DNA of 56,621 bases from positions 1 to 56,621 of the IMG/VR virus record IMGVR_UViG_3300030451_004511. One strand, given 5' to 3'. Each line of letters begins with the position of its first letter. The first letter of the stretch is position 1. Below the pieces are notes generated by a model, which was not told where the DNA came from, searched no databases, and saw nothing but the letters and a program-made list of their open reading frames with translations. This document shows, in pieces, positions 23,408 through 36,407 of the stretch. Position numbers and translations under genes: made by a program. This stretch comes from a virus.

Positions 23408-23911
23408 GAGTTTCATATCGGGGGGCTATCACAGTCCCCCCTCCTTCTTTCACTCGGACAGGGTGTGCTTACTACTATCATCACGAGCGGAGCGAGTGTG
23501 CGACAGTGTGCGACGGACCCTGGACAGCGGTCCACGTGTGCTGTCATGAAAATGTTCCATCGGTTCCACGTAAAAACCCCCTTGTGGAACCAACTAATGG
23601 AACCACGTTTTCATCAGTAACCGTGCGGGCTGGCAAGGCGTGCGGAGTACTCTGGTTCCACGGTTCCATCAAAAACAGGTTATGTTATAAAACAGAAGTC
23701 GACCGTCGACCGTGAACCATGAATTTTTGTTAACCAAAAAGTACTGGAACCAATGGAACCAAACTCGCAAACGCAGTAACCACGCGGAATATTCTGGTTC
23801 CACGAGCCATTTTTTACGTGGAACCAAGCGGAACCAGTGGAACATTTTTGGTCACCTACGTCCCTCCGGTGACCGGCTATTCATAAGAATTAAATAATTT
23901 AGGAGATAAAT
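23408..23911. other. Gene-free region with iteron-like repeats; origin candidate
   Basis: About 500 bases without a convincing gene. The left part holds GTGTGCGAC repeats and a GC-rich stretch. From 23553 to 23844 the TGGAACC heptamer or its complement recurs in both orientations. The two open frames here (23392-23715 and 23712-23897) mostly translate the repeats, so I do not call them genes. Composition differs from the surrounding coding DNA. Confidence 0.65.
23553..23844. repeat. Cluster of about 13 TGGAACC / GGTTCCA iterons
   Basis: Copies at 23562, 23585, 23598, 23654, 23662, 23745, 23754, 23796 and 23819 match TGGAACC or GGTTCCA exactly. Near matches are at 23553, 23711, 23830 and 23838. 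Many come in pairs eight to thirteen bases apart and in both orientations. Two more lie at about 22090 and 22118. This arrangement suggests binding sites for an initiator or a transcription regulator. Confidence 0.8.
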
Positions 23912-24100: not shown

Positions 24101-24109
24101 AGCTCAGTC

Positions 24110-24147
24110 AGCCACCCTTCTCCGGCGGGGTGGCTGGGTGTTTATGT
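24110..24147 (+). repeat. Module-border hairpin, copy 1
   Basis: A stem-loop with the lower stem AGCCA/TGGCT and an upper CCC/GGG, followed by the tail GGGTGTTTATGT. It belongs to a set of four with the same lower stem and tail but different upper stems (24583, 24715 and 24930). It separates the Cys-rich gene at 23912 from the next gene module. Confidence 0.75.
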
Positions 24148-24332: not shown

Positions 24333-24595
24333 TGATGTGTAGAGTTAAATTTATTAGAGAGCCTAAGGAGCCCAATGATGTATATATTGGGCGAGGCTCT
24401 AAGTGGGGCAATCCCTATCGCATCGGCGTGCATGGCTCGCGCGATGAGGTGATTGCCAAATATAGAGATTATCTCGAGAGCAATGAGCATTTAAAGTGCT
24501 CATTGCCTGAGCTAAGAGGTAAGAATTTGGTTTGTTATTGCAAGCCAAAAGCTTGCCATGGTGATGTATTAATGGAATATCTAGCCAACTCCTAA
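24332..24595 (+). CDS. DUF4326 family protein
   Basis: An 87-residue protein with the DUF4326 signature: VYIGRGSKWGNPYRIGVHGS near the N-terminus, REDVI-like RDEVIAKYRDYLE in the middle, and LRGKNLVCYCKPKACHGDVL at the end. The conserved Cys-Tyr-Cys-Lys-Pro and Cys-His residues could bind metal or act in catalysis; the biochemical role of the family is not settled. The family occurs in many phages. It overlaps the preceding gene by one base, and its stop lies within the second module-border hairpin. Confidence 0.85.
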   Translation: MMCRVKFIREPKEPNDVYIGRGSKWGNPYRIGVHGSRDEVIAKYRDYLESNEHLKCSLPELRGKNLVCYCKPKACHGDVLMEYLANS

Positions 24596-24620
24596 CGGAG
24601 ATTGGCTGGGTGTTTATGTG
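24583..24620 (+). repeat. Module-border hairpin, copy 2
   Basis: AGCCA, then CTCC/GGAG, then TGGCT, followed by GGGTGTTTATGT. The stem begins inside the end of the DUF4326 coding sequence. It is followed by CAAAAATT, a short block also found after copies 4 and the degenerate fifth copy at 26448. Confidence 0.75.
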
Positions 24621-24714
24621 TGCAAAAATTAAGATAGGTAGTTGTATTTACGCTCTGCTAGCAAGAGAAGTGTTCCAAGTACAACAATACTAAAATTAAT
24701 CCAGGAACCGATTC

Positions 24715-24751
24715 AGCCACTAGCTACCGCTAGTTGGCTGGATGTTTATAT
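24715..24751 (+). repeat. Module-border hairpin, copy 3
   Basis: AGCCA, then CTAGC/GCTAG, then a bulged T and TGGCT, followed by GGATGTTTATAT. The upper stem differs from copy 4 (CTCCC/GGGAG) yet pairs fully, so the pairing itself appears to be conserved. It borders the candidate RNA on its 5' side. Confidence 0.8.
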
Positions 24752-24772
24752 TTTAAAAGGTTGAAGTCTCAC

Positions 24773-24915
24773 CGGCTCCTTAAGAGAAGGATAAAGCTTT
24801 GTTTAAAAGGTGGGCCGAGGGGTTACTAAATCCTAGAGTAACTCAGCGAAACTCAGCATGAGAAGGTGGAGGTTTAAATCCCTCAAGATTTCCGATCGAG
24901 CCGACGTTAAGGCCC
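24773..24915 (+). ncRNA. Candidate structured non-coding RNA, family unknown
   Basis: A closing helix CGGCTC (24773-24778) with GAGCCG (24898-24903) encloses several hairpins: TCCTT/AAGGA, GTTACT (24822-24827) with AGTAAC (24837-24842), CTCA/TGAG, and GAGG/CCTC with a TTTAAATC loop that looks like a tRNA T-arm. GGGCC (24812-24816) can also pair with GGCCC (24911-24915) across the closing helix, giving a possible pseudoknot or switch. Border hairpins lie on both sides. A standard tRNA cloverleaf could not be completed. The structure was read by eye. Confidence 0.45.
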
Positions 24916-24929
24916 GGGTAAATTATTCT

Positions 24930-24966
24930 AGCCACTCCCTAACGGGAGTTGGCTGGATGTTTATAT
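24930..24966 (+). repeat. Module-border hairpin, copy 4
   Basis: AGCCA, then CTCCC/GGGAG, a bulged T and TGGCT, followed by GGATGTTTATAT. It separates the candidate RNA from the gene at 24989 and is followed by CTAAAAATT, like copy 2. Confidence 0.8.
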
Positions 24967-24988: not shown

Positions 24989-25345
24989 ATGAATCGTCGA
25001 GAGTTTTTAAAATTACTAATTGGTAAACAGGCGCAAGCCAAGGAGGACATTATGTCATTTACCACAAACTATGCCCCATCGCAGGGCTACTCGCTGGTTG
25101 TCACACCAAAAGGCAACCTTATGTTAAACGCTACCAGAATCAACCCTGGTGCTGACAAAAGTCCAGACGCAAGAGCAACCTTGCCGATGGATCAATTGTT
25201 TGAATACGCTTACGTCAAACCAAATGGCGCTGTCGTAATCAAACAAGTCGGGCAGATGGAATTTACTTTCTATCCTGCAGAGAGAAAAGCTCAAGCTGAC
25301 ATTGTTCAGCCTGAGATCTCTCTCGACTCAGCGTCTAACGCTTAA
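24989..25345 (+). CDS. Small beta-rich protein, unknown
   Basis: A 118-residue protein from ATG 24989 (GGAG site seven bases upstream). Its first residues NRREFLKLLIG resemble a twin-arginine motif but lack a proper hydrophobic core. ATG 25052 has a stronger AGGAGG site and would give a 97-residue protein starting MSFTTNYAPSQGYS; translation may start at either. The body is beta-rich (GYSLVVTPKGNLMLNATRI, later GAVVIKQVGQMEFTFYP). Strong terminators follow. No family recognised. Confidence 0.65.
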   Translation: MNRREFLKLLIGKQAQAKEDIMSFTTNYAPSQGYSLVVTPKGNLMLNATRINPGADKSPDARATLPMDQLFEYAYVKPNGAVVIKQVGQMEFTFYPAERKAQADIVQPEISLDSASNA

Positions 25346-25350
25346 CCTCT

Positions 25351-25373
25351 GGGGGCTTCGGCCCCCTTTTTTT
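25351..25373 (+). terminator. Strong rho-independent terminator
   Basis: A perfect stem GGGGGC/GCCCCC with a TTCG tetraloop is followed by seven T. It lies five bases after the stop of the gene at 24989, and ends the first early transcription module. Confidence 0.95.
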
Positions 25374-25388
25374 AATATCTTTTAATAA

Positions 25389-25412
25389 GACACACTGCGT
25401 GTGTGTTTTTTA
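25389..25412 (+). terminator. Second terminator in tandem
   Basis: ACACAC and GTGTGT form a stem with a three-base loop, followed by G and six T. Together with the terminator at 25351 it makes a strong transcription stop, so the genes from 25514 onward need their own promoter. Confidence 0.75.
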
Positions 25413-25454
25413 TTTTGGTCCAGAGGGGTGTGCGCAGTCTATGTGCTCAGAAAA

Positions 25455-25483
25455 GTTTCGGTGCTCCGCACCTCAACGGTTGT
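25455..25483 (+). repeat. Early-region repeat element, copy 3
   Basis: GTTTCGGTGCTCC, then GCACCTCAACGGTTGT; it shares start, end and length with copy 2 at 22482. It lies just after the tandem terminators and about 30 bases before the next gene, where a promoter is needed. AT-rich TATAAATAATAAT follows. Confidence 0.55.
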
Positions 25484-25513
25484 TTATAAATAATAATATT
25501 CCATGGAGGTTAT

Positions 25514-25657
25514 ATGGAAGAAAAATATATTGACGAGTCAATTCGTCGAGAAGCGAGTGATTATTTGTACATACCTGAGTTGAAGAACTCAGAAGTGTTG
25601 CAAGTAATTGCAAATAGAAACCAACACTCTAAACCACAAGGAGGTAAACATGAGTAA
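25514..25657 (+). CDS. Small charged protein
   Basis: A 47-residue charged, helical protein (MEEKYIDESIRREASDYLYI). ATGGAGG lies four to ten bases upstream. Its 3' end carries the AAGGAGG site for the next gene, and the two overlap by eight bases. The coupling supports expression. Too small to classify. Confidence 0.55.
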   Translation: MEEKYIDESIRREASDYLYIPELKNSEVLQVIANRNQHSKPQGGKHE

Positions 25658-26432
25658 AGGTGCAGATATATTCGATCCAGCAGATGTTGAGATCGAGATC
25701 GATATGGCGAACGGTGAAAACGGTGAGTTACTGCCAACGCAGGACACTCCCGAAGAAGCGTTCATTCCCGATACCATCGGTGATCCAGTAGGTTCTGACA
25801 ACAGATCCGAACAAGATGACATCGTTCTACCTGACTATTTCTACAAGAAGTATCAGCTAGATAACGAAGGTAATCCTACGTTCAATGCTGGCAGAGTCGG
25901 CGGTATTATGAAAATCTTTGACGAAAAACATGGTACGCCAATGACATTCAACAAAGACAACGAAGAACTTGCTGAGAAAGAGCAAGCATACTTCGAAGGT
26001 CAAGTTGATTCGATTGTTCTTGGTATGTCACCATTACTTGAAGTCGAGCCTCAAGCAACTGGCATCAACTTTTTACAGTTGGCTACCAGAACTTGGGCTG
26101 AGTTTGTATCTGTTGTCTTTGAATACAAAGAATCAATGGCAGAATCAGATCCAAGCAAAGAGATACCTGATTGGCTCTGCGAGCGTGAAGACAAAATGCT
26201 TCAGCTCGGTAGGAAGTCAAGATTGTTATCTTCTGCATTGGAAAAGCTCGATGATAAGTTTGGGCTCAAAGATGTCTCAATCAAAGCAGATAGAGTAAAA
26301 ACTCAAGTCGAGCTAAGATTGCAAAGACTTGCGGAGTGGAACTACAAAAATCTGGTAGACACTTCCAAGTTCAGCGCTCGTGTTATGACGCGTGATGCAA
26401 ATAGCGCGATGGACGTATCGGACGTAGCATAG
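25650..26432 (+). CDS. Early protein of unknown function
   Basis: A 260-residue protein. Residues 1-60 are acidic and probably unstructured (EIEIDMANGENGELLPTQ). The rest is helical, with a conserved-looking FYKKYQLDNEGNPTFNAGRV at about 70-90 and helices from 110 on. I start it at ATG 25650 (AAGGAGG at six bases) and not at the upstream in-frame codon. It resembles no family I know; a DNA-metabolism or host-takeover role would fit its place. Confidence 0.7.
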   Translation: MSKGADIFDPADVEIEIDMANGENGELLPTQDTPEEAFIPDTIGDPVGSDNRSEQDDIVLPDYFYKKYQLDNEGNPTFNAGRVGGIMKIFDEKHGTPMTFNKDNEELAEKEQAYFEGQVDSIVLGMSPLLEVEPQATGINFLQLATRTWAEFVSVVFEYKESMAESDPSKEIPDWLCEREDKMLQLGRKSRLLSSALEKLDDKFGLKDVSIKADRVKTQVELRLQRLAEWNYKNLVDTSKFSARVMTRDANSAMDVSDVA

Positions 26433-26667
26433 TCTAGGTTCGCATCTACCCACCAACCTACTTACTCGGAGTTGGTGGGGTGATGTAAAAATTGTGGGGA
26501 GTAGGGGTTGGTTACCGAACACCCAGCTGGGAGATGAAAAGGTCCCAGCACCGATATAAGGACGAGGGTTTTATTAGTTATTTTTATCCCTTCATTGACG
26601 AGCGTGGTTCACTCCAGTCCGCAAACGAACCACCTATAATTATTTTTTAACACTCGGAGGTGTGCAC
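26433..26667 (+). promoter_or_regulatory. Structured intergenic region
   Basis: No gene is seen here. It contains a hairpin ACCCACCAAC/GTTGGTGGGGT (26448-26481) followed by GATGTAAAAATTG, a degenerate relative of the module-border hairpins. Two more stems follow: GCTGGGA/TCCCAGC (26526-26549) and TGGTTC/GAACCA (26605-26632). A hairpin that presents the next ribosome site completes it. The run of structures suggests a regulated leader. Confidence 0.55.
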
Positions 26668-26670
26668 ATG
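26650..26670 (+). promoter_or_regulatory. Shine-Dalgarno hairpin, copy 1
   Basis: ACAC (26650-26653) pairs with GTGT (26660-26663), and the six-base loop TCGGAG holds the ribosome site. ATG 26668 follows four bases after the stem. This is one of four such leaders (also 27533, 28090 and 28295). Confidence 0.65.
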
Positions 26671-27048
26671 GGATTAGATATGAATGCAGGTTGGGTCAAC
26701 GACGATAAAAAAGAAGATGTCGTTGAGTTTCGTTGGAGAAAACATGCCAAGCTACAAGAGTTTATGCGTCAGCTTTGGTATCAGAAACAAGGTAAAGAGG
26801 CACCGGTAGGTGTAATGGGTTGCGATTTCAACTGCGAGACTCTTTACTTAGATGAAGTCGATATTCATGAGCTCAAGCAGAAACTAGAAACTTTTACTTT
26901 GCCACAAGCAAAGGACGGTTTCTTTTGGGGACAAGAGTATCAAGACGACAGCGCCCGTGAATCGGTGACCTATGACCTTGATTTTTGTACCAAAGCCCTT
27001 GCTTGGTTACAAGAAGGTCGTAAAGTTTGGTATAGTTGTTGGTGGTAA
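26668..27048 (+). CDS. Conserved phage protein starting MGLDMNAGW
   Basis: A 126-residue protein of the kind common in phage genomes that begins MGLDM and is rich in Trp, Tyr and Asp (WLQEGRKVWYSCWW at the end). The family function is not known to me. I start it at ATG 26668; a GTG six bases earlier would lie in the hairpin stem. The Shine-Dalgarno sequence lies in a hairpin loop. The next gene begins 22 bases after its stop. Confidence 0.7.
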   Translation: MGLDMNAGWVNDDKKEDVVEFRWRKHAKLQEFMRQLWYQKQGKEAPVGVMGCDFNCETLYLDEVDIHELKQKLETFTLPQAKDGFFWGQEYQDDSARESVTYDLDFCTKALAWLQEGRKVWYSCWW

Positions 27049-27070
27049 CACCAGGAGGTCAAAAACCATT

Positions 27071-27271
27071 ATGACACAGTATTCTGAAAAGGTTGCAAAA
27101 CGCAAAGAAGAGCTCAAACAAGAAGAGCTAGCTAAAAAAGTACACGCCATAGAGATAAGGTCAGGTCGTATCCAGACCTGGTATAAAGATGGGCGTGTTG
27201 TAACTGAGTTTCCTCGCGATAAGAGGAAAAAAACTACAGTTGAGTATAGAAATGTAGGGAGACAACTATGA
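27071..27271 (+). CDS. Small charged protein
   Basis: A 66-residue protein with a coiled-coil-like, Lys/Glu-rich first half (SEKVAKRKEELKQEELAKKV) and a beta-like second half (SGRIQTWYKDGRVVTEF). AGGAGG lies fourteen bases before ATG 27071, somewhat far. The ATG of the next gene overlaps its stop (ATGA). Function unknown. Confidence 0.6.
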   Translation: MTQYSEKVAKRKEELKQEELAKKVHAIEIRSGRIQTWYKDGRVVTEFPRDKRKKTTVEYRNVGRQL

Positions 27272-27444
27272 GCAAACTCAAAGATCTCATGCTAGATATC
27301 GATGCCCATGCCCAGACTCTCGTCGATGAGGGTTATAACTTTTATGAGTTCATGCAAGCCATGACTAAAAAGTATGGAGACATGGGTGGTGCCTATGCCG
27401 AACAGCTATGGAAAGAGCATTGGCAAGACCAATCATCTGATTAA
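27268..27444 (+). CDS. Small acidic helical protein
   Basis: A 58-residue acidic, helical protein (LKDLMLDIDAHAQTLVDEGY, later MGGAYAEQLWKEHW). Its start overlaps the stop of the gene before it by four bases, which shows translational coupling. The pseudoknot-like structure follows within eight bases of its stop. No family recognised. Confidence 0.6.
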   Translation: MSKLKDLMLDIDAHAQTLVDEGYNFYEFMQAMTKKYGDMGGAYAEQLWKEHWQDQSSD

Positions 27445-27451
27445 CCGAACG

Positions 27452-27525
27452 GTCTACACGAGTTAGATTAGTAGAAACCGGCTGACTTGTGTTCGTGTAG
27501 ACGCAATCCTGTGCGCAAGTCAGCC
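27452..27525 (+). ncRNA. Predicted H-type pseudoknot element with two perfect 10-bp stems
   Basis: Arm A GTCTACACGA (27452-27461) is fully complementary to A' TCGTGTAGAC (27493-27502). Arm B GGCTGACTTG (27480-27489) is fully complementary to B' CAAGTCAGCC (27516-27525). The order A-B-A'-B' makes them interleave, so they form a pseudoknot (loops of 18, 3 and 13 bases) or two competing hairpins. It lies between two genes and just before the second Shine-Dalgarno hairpin. A role in transcript stability, attenuation or translation control is likely; the family is unknown. Confidence 0.7.
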
Positions 27526-27532
27526 ACCTATT

Positions 27533-27553
27533 CACACAAGGAGGTGTGTTATG
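27533..27553 (+). promoter_or_regulatory. Shine-Dalgarno hairpin, copy 2
   Basis: CACAC (27533-27537) pairs with GTGTG (27544-27548), leaving AAGGAG as the six-base loop. ATG 27551 follows after two bases. It lies eight bases after the pseudoknot. Confidence 0.7.
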
Positions 27554-27838
27554 AAAAAAGGTCATTTATTGGATAGCACTACAAAATATCTAACTGAAGA
27601 TGAAATAGAGCTAAACAAACAACATTCTTTAAAAGAGAACAGACATAGCACTGCCATTGCTCTAACTTACGCAGATAAGGAAAGACTAAAACGGGTAGCA
27701 AAAGCTTTAGGTCTTAAATCACCAGCTGAAGCTATTAGGTACTTAACTTCTATGTTTATACCTGTTATCGAGGCTTGTTATGAAAATCAAACAGCTGACA
27801 TCATAAAACAAATGCAAAATACTTTGGTGAACAAATGA
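27551..27838 (+). CDS. Ribbon-helix-helix-like protein
   Basis: A 95-residue protein. The segment from about residue 33 (STAIALTYADKERLKRVAKA, then LGLKSPAEAIRYLTSMF) has the strand-helix-helix pattern of Arc/MetJ-type DNA-binding proteins. The N-terminal 30 residues are polar. It could be a phage repressor acting on early promoters. The next gene overlaps its stop by four bases. Its own translation is preceded by the pseudoknot and a Shine-Dalgarno hairpin, so its level may be tightly set. Confidence 0.6.
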   Translation: MKKGHLLDSTTKYLTEDEIELNKQHSLKENRHSTAIALTYADKERLKRVAKALGLKSPAEAIRYLTSMFIPVIEACYENQTADIIKQMQNTLVNK

Positions 27839-28011
27839 AAGTATTTGTTGTAATTACTATGTGGAAAGGTTTAATTGATGAAGTTGAAGTCTTTAAAACT
27901 GAACCCACTAACCTTAAACCAGTAGACGAACATGCAGACAATGGTCAGCTATGTTACGAACTACAGATTAAAGAGAAGGAGGAACGCAAGAGGCAGAAAG
28001 CTAGACTCTAG
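27835..28011 (+). CDS. Small protein, unknown
   Basis: A 58-residue protein with a beta-like start (MKVFVVITMWKGLIDEVEVF) and a charged helical end (KEKEERKRQKARL). The ATGA overlap with the ribbon-helix-helix-like gene suggests coupled translation. No family recognised. Confidence 0.6.
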   Translation: MKVFVVITMWKGLIDEVEVFKTEPTNLKPVDEHADNGQLCYELQIKEKEERKRQKARL

Positions 28012-28041
28012 TTGTAGGTGAAATCGCAACGTAAAAAAAGG

Positions 28042-28058
28042 AAGGCCTGTCTAGCCTT
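28042..28058 (+). terminator. Weak terminator-like hairpin
   Basis: AAGGC and GCCTT form a five-bp stem with a seven-base loop, followed by a pyrimidine-rich stretch (GTGTTTCTCTTTCTC) but no clean T run. It may attenuate transcription between the genes at 27835 and 28108. Confidence 0.35.
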
Positions 28059-28089
28059 GTGTTTCTCTTTCTCTTTAATTTAGTAAATT

Positions 28090-28110
28090 CACACAAGGAG
28101 GTGTGCTATG
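28090..28110 (+). promoter_or_regulatory. Shine-Dalgarno hairpin, copy 3
   Basis: CACAC (28090-28094) pairs with GTGTG (28101-28105) around the loop AAGGAG. ATG 28108 follows after two bases. The core is identical to copy 2. Confidence 0.7.
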
Positions 28111-28293
28111 GAAAACCAAGATATTAAACCAAAAAGCAATCGCAACGATTATAAACCTGTTCTTTTGCCCAAAGAGTTTCATGCAGAACTAAAAGAATAT
28201 TGTGCAAAACACAGCTTGCCGATGAACCACTTTATCGTAGCAGCATGCCGTAGGCATTTTAAATATCTAGCTGATTTACTGGATATGCAATAA
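28108..28293 (+). CDS. Ribbon-helix-helix-like small protein
   Basis: A 61-residue protein. YKPVLLPKEFHAELKEYCAK, then HSLPMNHFIVAACRRHF, resembles a single ribbon-helix-helix unit: a short strand, a helix, a turn and a second helix. It is a likely DNA-binding dimer and a possible partner or paralogue of the protein at 27551. Translation starts from the same type of hairpin leader. Confidence 0.6.
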   Translation: MENQDIKPKSNRNDYKPVLLPKEFHAELKEYCAKHSLPMNHFIVAACRRHFKYLADLLDMQ

Positions 28294-28294
28294 A

Positions 28295-28316
28295 CACACG
28301 AGGAGGTGTGCACGTG
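28295..28316 (+). promoter_or_regulatory. Shine-Dalgarno hairpin, copy 4
   Basis: CACAC (28295-28299) pairs with GTGTG (28306-28310) around the loop GAGGAG. The start here is GTG 28314, three bases after the stem. Confidence 0.65.
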
Positions 28317-28655
28317 AAAGATCTTTATCAACTTCACATCCAAATTTCTGTGCAAGATTACGAATGCGAACGTAAACGTGAGCTCGATGTCTTGCCTGAC
28401 TACACTACCTATTGCCTGGGTTTCACCGACAATACCGGTATAACGGATACGTTAGACAAACTTAGCGACCAAGTTAAGCATCTTTGTGAAGTCTATCGAA
28501 CTACATCCGAACTTCCCGCAGACACACCGCTGCACGTTGGCCTTTGGTTTACAACCCCTGCCAACAAAGACGACGTAACATTTGAACCATGGAACAAAGA
28601 ACCGAATCCCAACTGGACACCAACAATTATTCAAGGAGGTAAAAGTGAAAAATAA
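28314..28655 (+). CDS. Early protein, unknown, GTG start
   Basis: A 113-residue protein from GTG 28314 (V/MKDLYQLHIQISVQDYEC). It is acidic with a mixed beta/alpha pattern (TTYCLGFTDNTGITDTLDKL) and ends in a basic tail. The start follows the fourth Shine-Dalgarno hairpin. Its 3' end holds the AAGGAGG site of the next gene, with which it overlaps by eleven bases. No family recognised. Confidence 0.6.
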   Translation: MKDLYQLHIQISVQDYECERKRELDVLPDYTTYCLGFTDNTGITDTLDKLSDQVKHLCEVYRTTSELPADTPLHVGLWFTTPANKDDVTFEPWNKEPNPNWTPTIIQGGKSEK

Positions 28656-28851
28656 TTGTGTTAAATGGCGTGCAACACTTGCACACAAAGATACTGAGGA
28701 TATGCAGATAACGATTGAGTTTGATGCGCCGCAATTCTCAGATAATTGGAATTACAAATTGTTAGCCAAACTTGCTTTCATTAAGCAAATCACTATGGGC
28801 GAGCAGTTAATTGTAAATAATGTAGAACCTATTGAAACTAAGGAGGAGTAA
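28645..28851 (+). CDS. Small protein, unknown, GTG start
   Basis: A 68-residue protein. I start it at GTG 28645 because AAGGAGG lies five bases upstream; an earlier in-frame ATG at 28582 has no such site. The sequence is beta-rich (VKWRATLAHKDTEDMQITIE). It lies two bases before the MoxR gene, whose AAGGAGG site is inside its end, so the two may be co-translated. Confidence 0.6.
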   Translation: MKNNCVKWRATLAHKDTEDMQITIEFDAPQFSDNWNYKLLAKLAFIKQITMGEQLIVNNVEPIETKEE

Positions 28852-28853
28852 TT

Positions 28854-29876
28854 ATGCATTCAATAAAACCTACCCATTTGATATCAGAAATCAAAGAAAA
28901 CATGAGAGCTGGTATCAACACCATGATCTGGGGCGGTCCCGGTATTGGTAAATCAGAAATCCCACAACAAGTGGCTGACAGTCTCAACATGACATTGATC
29001 GACTTTCGTGCCAACTTGTTTGACCCTGTGGACGTACGTGGCGTGCCCCACATCCAAGCTGTAAAAGAAACAGGCGAACGTTTCACGCGTTGGGCTGTGC
29101 CTGATATTTTCCCAATCGAACAACGTGACGGTGAAACCGGTATCTTGTTCATTGACGAATTACCTACAGCACCACCTGCTACACAAAATGCATTCTTGCA
29201 ATTGTTGTTGACTCGACAGATCGGTGACTATGTCTTGCCAAAAGGTTGGTCAGTCATTGCTGCCGGTAATCGTCTTACCGATGCTGCGGCTGTGTATCAA
29301 ATGCCATCACCGGTAAGAAATCGTCTTGCTCACTACGAACTCGAAGCTAACCTAGATGACTGGGTATCGTGGGCGTACAACAACAATATCAACTCAGATC
29401 TTATTGGCTTCATTCAATACAGACCCGGTTTGTTGTACAACTTCAGTGCAGATGATTATGCGTTTCCTACACCCAGAAGCTGGTCGTTTGTAAGTAACAA
29501 ACTAAAATATCAACCGGAGGACGTCGACCATGATTCGTGTTTCTTTGGTGTCTCATCTCTAGTCGGCGACGGACCGGCTGGTGAATTTATTGCGTACAAG
29601 GAGATTGCGGATAAGCTGCCGGATATCGACAAACTCCTCGAAGATCCTTCCAAATACAAGAAGGACGATAACCCGGCTATCCTGTATGCATTATCCAGCG
29701 CCGTCGCAACTAGGGCTAAGCCAGAGTTGATGAAAAACATCATGAAGCTCAATGACAAATTGCCAGTTGAGTTTCAGGTTATCTTGATCAAGGGCTGTTT
29801 GGCTATTGATCCAAATCTTAAATCCGACCCATCCATGCGTAAGTGGATTGTCGACAATGCTAACGTCATTCTATAG
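28854..29876 (+). CDS. MoxR-type AAA+ ATPase
   Basis: A 340-residue protein. Walker A is GGPGIGKS at 27-34 and Walker B ILFIDE at 97-102. AAGN at 137-139 (sensor 1) and SPVRNRLAHYEL (arginine-finger region) match the MoxR branch. DVRGVPHI after the first helix is typical of that group. MoxR proteins act as chaperones or unfoldases with VWA-domain partners; such a partner is encoded at 31156 in the same operon. ATP-dependent remodelling of a host or phage protein complex is likely. The ATG has AAGGAGG at seven bases. Confidence 0.9.
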   Translation: MHSIKPTHLISEIKENMRAGINTMIWGGPGIGKSEIPQQVADSLNMTLIDFRANLFDPVDVRGVPHIQAVKETGERFTRWAVPDIFPIEQRDGETGILFIDELPTAPPATQNAFLQLLLTRQIGDYVLPKGWSVIAAGNRLTDAAAVYQMPSPVRNRLAHYELEANLDDWVSWAYNNNINSDLIGFIQYRPGLLYNFSADDYAFPTPRSWSFVSNKLKYQPEDVDHDSCFFGVSSLVGDGPAGEFIAYKEIADKLPDIDKLLEDPSKYKKDDNPAILYALSSAVATRAKPELMKNIMKLNDKLPVEFQVILIKGCLAIDPNLKSDPSMRKWIVDNANVIL

Positions 29877-29885
29877 GAGGTATAT

Positions 29886-30536
29886 ATGGCTACAGTAAGA
29901 ATGTCACAACGATTGACATCAGAAATTCGTAACGCTGCAAAGAAAAAGTTTGCAACCGTACATCCAACCATCGATCATATTTACATTGATGATTGGTTCA
30001 AAGAAAACATCTACAACAAAATTGATAAATACAAAGATATGACCAATGAATTGTTTGGCTCTGATGTTTTCAACTACGACCGAATGAGTTCACTTGACAC
30101 AGTGTATATCTATTCTACGTACACCGATGAAGAAGGTGACGAACGTAAAGTTAATCAACAGTGTGAATTTGAACAAGGTCAGTTCGAAGTTCCTTATCAA
30201 CTTGCAAACGGTTATTCATCTATGAGTTTGTATTTGCCTACTGAAAATTCTGTTGTGCAAAAAATTATTAAAACTCAAAACCATAATCGTGCAGTAAACA
30301 GAAAAAAAGATGCTTATCTTGACAAGATTGATGAAGCGCTTAGTGAATTTACTACACTCAACCAAGCACTCAAAGCATGGCCTGCATTGAAAGACTTGGT
30401 AGAAGATGAGTACATTCAAAAAGTACACAAGAAAGTTCCTAGAGCTCAAAAGCAAAAGGAACAACGTGAATTGATTGAGTCTCAAGAACAAGAGCTCAAT
30501 GAAGTATTACTAACTGCAAACCTATTGGAGAACTAA
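29886..30536 (+). CDS. Unknown protein between MoxR ATPase and VWA protein (A)
   Basis: A 216-residue protein. The first half is mixed with aromatic residues (HIYIDDWFKENIYNKIDKYK). The second half is helical and charged, ending in a Gln/Glu-rich coiled coil (ESQEQELNEVLLTANLLEN). AGGAGG lies six bases before the start. The fixed order with the MoxR and VWA genes suggests it is a substrate, adaptor or specificity subunit. No family recognised. Confidence 0.7.
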   Translation: MATVRMSQRLTSEIRNAAKKKFATVHPTIDHIYIDDWFKENIYNKIDKYKDMTNELFGSDVFNYDRMSSLDTVYIYSTYTDEEGDERKVNQQCEFEQGQFEVPYQLANGYSSMSLYLPTENSVVQKIIKTQNHNRAVNRKKDAYLDKIDEALSEFTTLNQALKAWPALKDLVEDEYIQKVHKKVPRAQKQKEQRELIESQEQELNEVLLTANLLEN

Positions 30537-30538
30537 TT

Positions 30539-31147
30539 ATGTCAACTGATTTACTTTACAAGCCCGGCGATTTTGTCGGGTATCGTTTCTGTGGTGGTGT
30601 TGGCTATGCTTATCTCAATGCCTACAAATGGTACATCCCAAAGACTTACAAAAACCATAATGATGAAATTGTAAGTCCAGATCCAAAAATTGTGTATCTT
30701 GCAACTAAGTTCTATGGACTCAACAGTTCATACGGTATGTATCAAAGTTATGGTTTTAGAGAAAATGGTTGGAAAAACCAAGAAGAATACTATGCTACTC
30801 ATCCTGAATATCGTAGAGACCATTGGCCTGAAGGTAAACAACCTAACTATGAACAGCACACAAAATATTTTCTACCTGTTTGGCAAGACGATATTTGTTT
30901 TGTTGTAGATTTTGATAAAGATGAAAATGAGTACCCTACTCAAAGATACAATTATCAAACGCAAAAATGGGAAAATACTATTGCAAGTGTTCATAACAAA
31001 TTTAAATGGTTTGATAAAGAAAAGCTAATTAAAGCACTTGATGTTAAATATTCTACATTTACAGGTGACAAACAAATTGCTGCACAAGCTATAGAAAAGT
31101 TTGAAAAACGTAAAGCGCAAGTTTTATTACGTAAACTCACAGCTTAG
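30539..31147 (+). CDS. Unknown protein between MoxR ATPase and VWA protein (B)
   Basis: A 202-residue protein rich in Tyr, Trp and Asn (YRFCGGVGYAYLNAYKWYIP, later GLNSSYGMYQSYGFRENGWK). The composition hints at a carbohydrate-, nucleotide- or protein-binding surface. It starts two bases after the stop of gene A and ends eight bases before the VWA gene. It has no recognised family. It probably acts in the same complex. Confidence 0.7.
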   Translation: MSTDLLYKPGDFVGYRFCGGVGYAYLNAYKWYIPKTYKNHNDEIVSPDPKIVYLATKFYGLNSSYGMYQSYGFRENGWKNQEEYYATHPEYRRDHWPEGKQPNYEQHTKYFLPVWQDDICFVVDFDKDENEYPTQRYNYQTQKWENTIASVHNKFKWFDKEKLIKALDVKYSTFTGDKQIAAQAIEKFEKRKAQVLLRKLTA

Positions 31148-34222: not shown

Positions 34223-34432
34223 ATGTCTAAAGTTTTAGTCAAACGCAACCCTATTCATCCTTACACATACAAGAATCCTGACGACTTGCCACGCATCCAA
34301 TGGAAACTAGTTTCTAAAGGAGTTGCATACAACATGGTACACAGTAAGCAAATCGGTTGGGAGCGAGCTAAGAAAGGTGAATACGAAGATTGGCAACAAC
34401 AAATGAAACAACGAGGTTTTAAAATTTTATGA
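34223..34432 (+). CDS. Small basic protein before the polymerase
   Basis: A 69-residue basic protein (VKRNPIHPYTYKNPDDLPRI, later WERAKKGEYEDWQQQMKQRG). AAGGATAAT precedes the start. Its stop overlaps the polymerase ATG by four bases, so they are co-translated. It may bind DNA or the polymerase. No family recognised. Confidence 0.6.
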   Translation: MSKVLVKRNPIHPYTYKNPDDLPRIQWKLVSKGVAYNMVHSKQIGWERAKKGEYEDWQQQMKQRGFKIL

Positions 34433-36228
34433 ACAAAATCTATCTTGACTTTGAAACTTACTACGATACAGAAGTATCACTCTCAAAAATTACAACGCTA
34501 CAATACGTGCATCATCCAGACTTCAAAATCTGGGGTGTCGGTGTAAAGCTTAATGATGAACCTACCGAATGGTATGGTGAAGATGATTATCTTGATGCAT
34601 TACAACAGATCCCCTGGGAAGACTGTGCAGTTATTTGCCACAACACTTTGTTTGATGCATACATTTTGACACAGCATCTAGGATTATATCCTGCATACTA
34701 TTACGATACAGCTGCCATGGCCCGGGGTTTGTATCCAAACCAATCAGCTGCATTGAAAGCAGTAGCTGAACGTGTGTTTCCTAACGATGAAACCATGCGT
34801 AAAGGAGAGGAACTAGTCAATGCAAAAGGTATTCGCGACTTGCCTCCTGACATCGAAGAACAAATTGCTGGTTATTGTATACAAGACGTAGATCTAACTT
34901 ATGCAATCTTCAACAAGTTTATACAAGACTATCCAGCTGATGAGCTCGATGTAATCGATCTGACCTGCCGCATGTATGTAGAACCAAAACTGACCTTGAA
35001 CCGTGAACTTTTGCTCAAGCACCTTGAAGATACTAAAGTTAGAACAGCACAACTTATTGAAGACTCAGGAGTAACACGCGAAGTTCTTGCATCTCAAAAA
35101 AAGTTTGCTGAACATCTAGAAAGCCTGGACATTGTTGTACCAACTAAAAAGAGCCCCAATACAGGTAAACAAATACCCGCATTTAGTAAAACAGATTCGG
35201 CGTATATACAAATGCAAAATGTTTATCCTGAATACAAACATCTTTGGGATGCCAGAGAAGCTGTAAAGTCACGCTTAGAAGAAACACGCGCACAAAGGTT
35301 TCTAGAAAACATTAACCCAGACGGAACATTTCCTGTGCCGCTTAGGTATTATGCCGCACACACAGGACGATTCGGTGGTACAGAAAGTCTTAACTTACAA
35401 AACCTGCCCCGGGGATCTGTGTTACGTAAAGCACTTACAGCTCCTGAAGGCCAACGTTTGTTTGTTGCTGACTTATCAAACATCGAAGCCCGCATGCTTG
35501 CATGGCTTGCTAATCAACAAGATTTACTTGACGCCTTTGCAGCAGGACGTGATGTATACAGCGAGTTTGCATCACAAATTTACGGCAGACCTGTAACTAA
35601 AGCTGACAAACTAGAACGTTATGTTGGTAAGACAGCTATCTTAGGCCTAGGTTATGGTATGGGACATGAAAAATTTAGATACACACTCAAGACAGGTTCT
35701 CCTTCAGTCGATGTAAGTTTGATGACTGCGCTTAGTGTTGTTACTCAATATCGTGCAATGTATCCAAACATACCAAGGCTTTGGGCTGCATTTAAAGAAC
35801 ATCTTTACACTATGGCTGCAGGCGGAAACAACACAGGTTTACCTTATGGACCTCTCATTGTTCGTGGTAAAGCTATAGAACTACCCAACAAAATGCGTTT
35901 ACAGTATCCAGAACTTTCGTTCTTGTCAGGTGAATTTACTTACAACTCAGGTAAAAATACTACAAGAACCTACGGAGCTCGTATGGTAGAGAATGTAGTA
36001 CAAGCACTCGCCCGGGCCGTAATTGTAGAACAAATGCTAGCGGTAAACAAAATGCCAGAAGTATCAGTTGTATTACAGGTACATGATGAGATTATATCTA
36101 TTGGCTCAAATGTTAATGCAGACGAGACACTAGCTAAAATAATCGATATAATGAAGACACCTCCACTTTGGTGTTCAACATTACCACTTGACGCAGAGGG
36201 AGATCATAGCCAACAATATGACAAATGA
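34429..36228 (+). CDS. Family A DNA polymerase with 3'-5' exonuclease
   Basis: A 599-residue protein. The exonuclease domain starts YLDFETYY (Asp7, Glu9) with CHNTLFDAY as motif II. The polymerase domain has motif A DLSNIEAR (Asp348), motif B RYVGKTAILGLGYGMG (Arg397, Lys401, Tyr409) and motif C VHDE (His552, Asp553, Glu554). The position equal to E. coli Pol I Phe762 is Leu405. It has no 5'-3' exonuclease domain. It is the replicative enzyme, encoded with primase-helicase and nucleases. The Leu type has been linked by others to slower or temperate lifestyles. Confidence 0.92.
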   Translation: MNKIYLDFETYYDTEVSLSKITTLQYVHHPDFKIWGVGVKLNDEPTEWYGEDDYLDALQQIPWEDCAVICHNTLFDAYILTQHLGLYPAYYYDTAAMARGLYPNQSAALKAVAERVFPNDETMRKGEELVNAKGIRDLPPDIEEQIAGYCIQDVDLTYAIFNKFIQDYPADELDVIDLTCRMYVEPKLTLNRELLLKHLEDTKVRTAQLIEDSGVTREVLASQKKFAEHLESLDIVVPTKKSPNTGKQIPAFSKTDSAYIQMQNVYPEYKHLWDAREAVKSRLEETRAQRFLENINPDGTFPVPLRYYAAHTGRFGGTESLNLQNLPRGSVLRKALTAPEGQRLFVADLSNIEARMLAWLANQQDLLDAFAAGRDVYSEFASQIYGRPVTKADKLERYVGKTAILGLGYGMGHEKFRYTLKTGSPSVDVSLMTALSVVTQYRAMYPNIPRLWAAFKEHLYTMAAGGNNTGLPYGPLIVRGKAIELPNKMRLQYPELSFLSGEFTYNSGKNTTRTYGARMVENVVQALARAVIVEQMLAVNKMPEVSVVLQVHDEIISIGSNVNADETLAKIIDIMKTPPLWCSTLPLDAEGDHSQQYDK

Positions 36229-36407
36229 GCAATCTAGTTTTAACACGCAGAAAGGGGGACTCAATCATAATCCAAAAAGATGATGAACAACTCTGTAAAG
36301 TAACAATTACAGCGTTAGGTCCTAAACAAGTTAAACTAGCATTTGAAGCAGATTCAAAAGTTATCATTGACAGGGAAGAAATATATAATTCAAAACAACA
36401 ACAATAG
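36225..36407 (+). CDS. CsrA/RsmA-like RNA-binding regulator
   Basis: A 60-residue protein. NLVLTRRKGDSIIIQ at the N-terminus and VTITALGPKQVKLAFEAD, then KVIIDREEIY, match the CsrA family along its whole length, including the first strand L-T-R-R and the C-terminal RNA-contact element V-x-x-x-R-E-E-I-Y. CsrA binds GGA motifs near ribosome sites and alters translation or stability of mRNAs. A phage copy may reset host carbon flow or control phage messages. It overlaps the polymerase by four bases. Confidence 0.92.
   Translation: MSNLVLTRRKGDSIIIQKDDEQLCKVTITALGPKQVKLAFEADSKVIIDREEIYNSKQQQ

What the first reader, a model, noticed from the sequence alone, without database searches (positions are those of the whole stretch)
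27452..27525. Two interleaved perfect 10-bp complementary arms: a pseudoknot or two-state switch
GTCTACACGA/TCGTGTAGAC and GGCTGACTTG/CAAGTCAGCC are each fully complementary and arranged A-B-A'-B' within 74 bases. Chance occurrence of two such pairs is very low. It lies eight bases after a stop codon and eight before the hairpin that carries the next ribosome site of a ribbon-helix-helix-like gene. It could be a compact RNA pseudoknot (for example protection from exonucleases, or translational control) or two alternative hairpins that switch.
Basis: partly seen in the sequence, partly recalled or inferred. Interest (0 to 1): 0.75.

Follow-up and report, generated by a model that had tools for sequence, protein, structure and literature searches.

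The report
RNA pseudoknot before phage translation switch
Just upstream of a small gene in an uncultivated virus that infects bacteria, the messenger RNA very probably folds into a compact knot next to a hairpin that hides the ribosome's landing site; relatives of the virus carry a different knotted RNA at the same place, and nearly all encode a protein (CsrA) known to grip such hairpins, so the whole looks like a virus-run translation control system.

Summary
The two perfect 10-bp arm pairs are real, interleaved A-B-A'-B', and exceed chance: none in 400 simulated genomes, about 0.3% per window by extrapolation. A rough energy estimate favours an H-type pseudoknot over nested folds by about 5 kcal/mol. 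The only relative with the element (L003) is identical there, so covariation cannot be tested on this copy. It lies 7 nt upstream of a hairpin, CACAC-AAGGAG-GTGTG, that holds the Shine-Dalgarno GGA in its loop, a near-perfect CsrA site. The virus encodes CsrA, as do 41 of 48 related contigs, and such hairpins are about 2.7-fold enriched over shuffles at starts in the clade but not in four control phages. Several relatives carry, at the same place, another about 100-nt RNA with the same interleaved topology; both its pseudoknot helices show compensatory changes, and Rfam has no match. Covariance models built from it do not find the window element, so homology is unproven. Best reading: a cis-acting leader pseudoknot that insulates a CsrA-type translational operator. 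'Pseudoknot or translational control' is supported; the two-state switch is less likely; exonuclease protection is untested. Structure is likely (about 0.75); the mechanism is inferred (about 0.4).

The parts
27452..27461 (+). Arm A (5' strand of helix 1), GTCTACACGA
27462..27479 (+). Loop 1, 18 nt, GTTAGATTAGTAGAAACC
27480..27489 (+). Arm B (5' strand of helix 2), GGCTGACTTG
27490..27492 (+). Junction loop 2, 3 nt; could instead extend helix A or B by G-U pairs
27493..27502 (+). Arm A' (3' strand of helix 1), TCGTGTAGAC
27503..27515 (+). Loop 3, 13 nt
27516..27525 (+). Arm B' (3' strand of helix 2), CAAGTCAGCC
27533..27548 (+). SD-carrying hairpin CACAC-AAGGAG-GTGTG, near-perfect CsrA-type site
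   Evidence: consensus from PMC7652899
27551..27838 (+). Controlled gene, 95 aa, function unknown (RHH not confirmed)
27268..27444 (+). Upstream gene, 58 aa, ends 7 nt before the pseudoknot
27530..27558 (+). 29-bp repeat (SD hairpin), copy 1; recombination junction relative to L003
28087..28115 (+). 29-bp repeat (SD hairpin), copy 2, in front of the Arc-like gene 28108-28293
27962..28084 (+). Second structured spacer: long hairpin in front of SD-hairpin copy 2 (z -5.9)
36225..36407 (+). CsrA homologue of the virus, the presumed trans-acting partner

Best explanation
27452-27525 is a cis-acting H-type RNA pseudoknot (two coaxially stackable 10-bp helices) in the intergenic leader of gene 27551. 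It works as a structural module of a composite translational operator: pseudoknot, 7-nt spacer, then a hairpin presenting the Shine-Dalgarno GGA in its loop. The hairpin is bound by the virus's own CsrA (or the host's), which closes the ribosome site; the pseudoknot insulates it by stopping terminating or sliding ribosomes from the gene just upstream and by blocking alternative pairing or degradation of the leader, so that translation of 27551 is uncoupled and answers to CsrA. Shown: arms, statistics, position, SD hairpin, CsrA gene, clade-wide enrichment of such hairpins, and a covarying pseudoknotted RNA in the same place in relatives. Inferred: that the RNA folds so in vivo, that CsrA binds, and the insulating role.
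For: Interleaved 10/10 arms beyond chance. Estimated pseudoknot energy -30.8 against a nested optimum of -25.7 kcal/mol for the 74 nt (rough). Co-directional small genes around it, no terminator-like site in 27440-27560 and no + strand promoter-like site near it. Hexaloop AAGGAG closed by AC/GU differs at one position from the CsrA SELEX core ACARGGAUGU (PMC7652899). Virus CsrA: Pfam E 6e-12, in 41 of 48 related contigs, with the LxLTRR and REEIY segments kept. SD-GGA hairpins of 5 or more WC pairs: 9 of 37 rightward genes against 1.7 expected, 0 of 32 leftward genes; relatives 115 against 43 (sd 6); four control phages not significant. Relatives carry a pseudoknotted RNA with both helices covarying, directly or with one further element in front of the same SD hairpin in L005, L007, L008, L033, L037, L052, L067 and L071, and in front of another SD hairpin in L042, L046 and L048. 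Other relatives have strong long hairpins in this slot (L009 z -5.8, L011 z -4.6).
Against: No covariation can be shown for this copy: the one homologue (L003) is identical over the element. Covariance models from the relatives' RNA do not match it, so the common slot may be convergence. The element has no GGA and hence no second CsrA site. Gene 28314 in the window has an SD hairpin with only a 20-nt spacer and no such element before it. No expression or binding data exist.
Confidence: 0.42

Rival explanations
1. mRNA processing and stability element: the pseudoknot and the long hairpins of other relatives are barriers or cleavage sites (RNase III or RNase E) at the joints of a polycistronic early transcript, protecting the 3' end of the upstream or the 5' end of the downstream message.
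For: Strong structures of unrelated sequence recur at gene joints: the 27962-28084 hairpin z -5.9, L009 and L011 hairpins. T4 gene 32 mRNA, which has a leader pseudoknot, is processed by RNase E next to it (PMC3014915).
Against: Two 10-bp helices are short for an RNase III site; no expression data.
Confidence: 0.25
2. Autogenous protein operator as in T4 gene 32: the product of the next gene, or another virus protein, binds the pseudoknot and spreads over the ribosome site.
For: Position resembles the T4 gene 32 operator, a pseudoknot upstream of the start codon (PMC3014915). In L042, L046 and L048 the relatives' pseudoknot RNA precedes a small gene of regulator-like size.
Against: In L003 the same element precedes a different gene, so the ligand is unlikely to be the product of the next gene; the leader here is a hairpin, not an unstructured A+U stretch.
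Confidence: 0.12
3. Two alternative hairpins that switch translation on and off.
For: Nested folding forms only one of the two helices, and the G-U extensions of both compete for 27490-27492.
Against: The arms share no base, and neither helix covers the SD hairpin, which forms in both cases.
Confidence: 0.08
4. Chance or DNA-level inverted repeats (operator) without an RNA role.
For: Single 10-bp inverted repeats are common in this window; the first-stage reader picked it out of many possible features; covariation is untestable.
Against: Interleaving at about 0.3% per window, placed within a 106-nt spacer; arm spacing of 26-31 nt is unlike an operator; no + strand promoter-like site near.
Confidence: 0.13

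Closest known systems
T4 gene 32 mRNA leader pseudoknot (autogenous operator)
   Same: H-type pseudoknot in a phage mRNA leader upstream of a ribosome site, with coaxial A-form helices (PMC3014915)
   Different: Longer helices here, an SD hairpin instead of an unstructured leader, downstream gene not shown to be an SSB, no known protein ligand
CsrA/RsmA translational operators (psl-type SD hairpin)
   Same: GGA of the SD in a hairpin loop, hexaloop closed by AC/GU; CsrA family protein encoded by the virus (PMC7652899)
   Different: A single GGA site per leader instead of two or more, and a pseudoknot in front; binding not tested
PeSL cassettes of T4-type phages
   Same: Intergenic stem-loop cassettes at joints where genes are gained and lost (named in PMC4503421)
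   Different: No promoter-like site found; the shuffled repeat is the SD hairpin, and the stem-loop is replaced by a pseudoknot here
About 100-nt pseudoknotted RNA of relatives (alignment A2; no Rfam match)
   Same: A-B-A'-B' topology and same genomic slot in front of a CsrA-type SD hairpin
   Different: 5-bp helices, an outer stem and a third hairpin; no detectable sequence relation

Membership tests
H-type RNA pseudoknot | Two helices with interleaved strands and loops long enough to span the grooves | tested here: met
   10+10 bp, loops 18/3/13 nt
H-type RNA pseudoknot | Compensatory changes in homologues | tested here: inconclusive
   Only homologue L003 is identical
H-type RNA pseudoknot | Both helices formed in solution or in vivo | not testable with these tools
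   needs SHAPE/DMS or NMR
CsrA-type operator (adjacent hairpin) | GGA in hairpin loop overlapping the SD, loop ANGGAN closed by AC/GU | tested here: met
   27533-27548 CACAC-AAGGAG-GTGTG; one mismatch to ACARGGAUGU
CsrA-type operator (adjacent hairpin) | CsrA present in the same replicon | tested here: met
CsrA-type operator (adjacent hairpin) | CsrA binding and regulation | not testable with these tools
   needs a binding assay
T4 gene 32 operator | Downstream gene encodes the SSB that binds the pseudoknot | tested here: inconclusive
   gene 27551 has no significant family match, and L003 has a different gene there
Relatives' pseudoknotted RNA (A2) | Match to its covariance model | tested here: not met
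Any Rfam family | Match near or above gathering score | tested here: not met
   whole window, E up to 5, none at this place
Intrinsic terminator | G+C-rich stem followed by a U run | tested here: not met
   B' is followed by ACCTATTC; no site listed in 27440-27560
Stop-codon readthrough or frameshift pseudoknot | An open frame beyond the stop that the pseudoknot would open | tested here: not met
   In-frame readthrough ends at TAG 27469 after 8 codons; the +1 frame ends at TAG 27464; no slippery heptamer seen

The most novel reading that the evidence does not exclude
In this clade of uncultivated viruses a virus-encoded CsrA governs a regulon of early genes through SD hairpins, and a set of interchangeable structured RNA modules, among them at least two independent pseudoknots, is placed directly in front of these operators as a second control input.
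Probability: 0.3. Interest if true: 0.8.

Novelty: new variant of a known kind. Interest (0 to 1): 0.55.

Why it matters
Phage-borne csrA genes are known (30 of 2517 phage genomes in PMC7366521), but the literature held here showed no description of their targets. This clade offers a CsrA gene in nearly every member together with candidate targets at the start codons of its early genes, and a pseudoknotted RNA, unmatched in Rfam, next to some of them. That makes the role of viral CsrA and of leader pseudoknots directly testable with short synthetic leaders and one 60-residue protein.

Tried and rejected
Rfam on the window and on relatives: nothing relevant. Named phages and plasmids: no DNA match. 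GTDB genomes: no relative of the nearby ATPase. Searches with the upstream gene, with loop 1 and with the A arms found only L003's contig; a search with the protein of gene 27551 found nothing. The B arms also occur in six other contigs whose flanking sequence shows no relation: chance. The SD-hairpin sequence in L076 is an unrelated match. Recoding, terminator and DNA operator were considered and set aside. Homology to the relatives' pseudoknotted RNA was suggested by shared TACAC/GTGTA and TGACT/AGTCA core pairs, but two covariance models did not find it. ARAGORN found no tRNA in the window or in 12 relatives, although the relatives' RNA looked tRNA-like at first.

Full report
The window is a 56.6-kb IMG/VR virus record. 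It has a leftward block that includes structural genes and a rightward block of small genes followed by replication genes, among them a DNA polymerase A at 34429 and a CsrA at 36225. The nearest known proteins are remote (ATPase under 40% identity to phages; terminase 51% to Aeromonas phage phiA008), and no DNA match to named phages was found for 25000-31000. Seventy IMG/VR contigs carry relatives of the ATPase 28854-29876.

Observation. The two arm pairs are exact and interleaved. The window holds ten 10-bp inverted repeats within 80 nt (5.1 expected), but only one interleaved pair; none of 400 Markov genomes had one, and the trend for 8 and 9 bp (32%, 3.3%) extrapolates to about 0.3%. Given B, a crossing helix of 8 bp or more comes up in 1.1% of shuffles. 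The element fills 74 of the 106 nt between the stop of 27268-27444 and the start of 27551. Helix stacking energies of -19.8 and -20.6 kcal/mol with a 9.6 penalty give -30.8, against -25.7 for the best nested fold; this is a rough estimate that leaves out loop length. Because the first-stage reader chose this out of many possible features, the chance figure should not be read as a corrected probability.

Relatives. Only L003 carries the element, identical from 27445 to 27548; its flanks differ so little (4 differences in 27272-27550) that the identity says nothing about constraint. In L003 the genes 27551-28086 are missing and the element is joined, at the 29-bp repeat that is the SD hairpin, to the Arc-like gene 28108. 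A second difference, an extra stretch of about 230 nt, falls at the SD hairpin of the following gene. The SD hairpins are thus joints at which genes are gained or lost.

What stands in the same slot elsewhere. L009 and L010/L011 have long hairpins. L005, L007, L008, L033, L037, L052, L067 and L071 have the pseudoknotted RNA described next in front of the same SD hairpin, in L005-L008 with a further 94-nt element between (L006 has only the latter). The RNA is about 100 nt long and was found as a single copy in 16 of 48 contigs. Its alignment (A2, 21 sequences) supports an outer stem, two interleaved 5-bp helices (100% and 99% of cells paired; changes on both sides in 3 and 1 pairs) and a hairpin; cells with changes on both sides are 57 against 20 in shuffles, and sliding the partners destroys the signal (core alone). 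I proposed the structure from this same alignment, so the slide control is partly circular; the shuffles and the double changes (for example GGGGG/CCCCC to GACGG/CCGTC, ACAC/GTGT to ACGC/GCGT, GACTA/TAGTC to GGTTA/TAATC) are the better evidence. Half of 20 copies are followed within about 15 nt by a GGA-loop hairpin of 5 or more WC pairs. Rfam has no match. Models R1 and R2 built from it do not detect the window element, so I do not file the two together.

The neighbour. The SD hairpin CACAC-AAGGAG-GTGTG has the ANGGAN hexaloop closed by AC/GU that defines good CsrA sites (PMC7652899). The virus has CsrA, as do 41 of 48 related contigs, with the LxLTRR and REEIY segments kept. At rightward genes of the window 9 of 37 starts have a GGA-loop hairpin of 5 or more WC pairs against 1.7 in shuffles, and 0 of 32 leftward genes; a mechanical gene set gives 8 of 33 against 2.3. 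In relatives the figures are 115 of 635 against 43 with sd 6. T7, phiA008, S-CRES3 and Vibrio phage 1.025.O are not significant (T7 shows 4 against 1.9). The relatives share ancestry, so the 115 are not independent, and I did not check that the control phages lack csrA, although the window's CsrA found no relative among named phages.

Mechanism. The likeliest function is a composite leader: the pseudoknot begins 7 nt after the stop codon, where a terminating ribosome would stand against it, and ends 7 nt before the SD hairpin. It would stop coupling from the upstream gene and keep the operator hairpin free to be held by CsrA. The processing or stability reading fits nearly as well, since the slot accepts quite different structures. 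A gene-32-like autogenous operator is less likely because the downstream gene differs between the window and L003. The pseudoknot offers no GGA of its own.

Verdict. Observation confirmed; pseudoknot likely but without covariation of its own; function inferred. The context, a virus CsrA with SD hairpins at its early genes and a covarying pseudoknotted RNA in the same slot, is the more interesting result.

Noticed in passing
window 22199, 23190, 23897, 24156, 24317, 26650, 27533, 28090, 28297, 34206; 36225-36407: CsrA gene of the virus and SD-loop hairpins at many rightward genes; enriched in the whole clade, candidate virus CsrA regulon.
   Followed up: partly
L007:4178-4284, L033:5345-5450, L071:5346-5455, L046:10752-10860 and others (alignment A2): About 100-nt pseudoknotted RNA with covariation, one copy per contig in 16 of 48 contigs, no Rfam match; 97% identical between L007 and L033 although their ATPases are 88% and 69% identical to the window's.
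   Followed up: yes
L007:4292-4385, also L005, L006, L008: Second structured 94-nt element, 98-100% identical among four contigs, directly in front of the SD hairpin.
   Followed up: partly
window 23549-23848: Noncoding stretch with many TGGAACCA/TGGTTCCA boxes in both orientations; relatives have similar clusters with another box (TGTTCCA, TGTTACA): possible origin or operator.
   Followed up: no
window 24108-24147, 24583-24619, 24713-24750, 24930-24966, about 26447-26487: Repeated stem-loop AGCCA...TGGCTGG-TGTTTAT between small genes.
   Followed up: no
window 24760-24965: Noncoding stretch predicted to fold strongly (-71 kcal/mol), with a T-arm-like motif, no Rfam match.
   Followed up: no
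window 27962-28084: Long hairpin (z -5.9) in front of the second SD-hairpin copy.
   Followed up: partly
L050:9088-9600: About 500-nt noncoding stretch where the early genes meet an opposing gene, with the pseudoknotted RNA and further hairpins separated by T runs.
   Followed up: no
L121 12450-12530 (- strand), L024, L114: Hairpin atgccaAGGAGtggcat behind the pseudoknotted RNA without a start codon right after it, then a terminator-like hairpin: possible CsrA-binding noncoding RNA.
   Followed up: no
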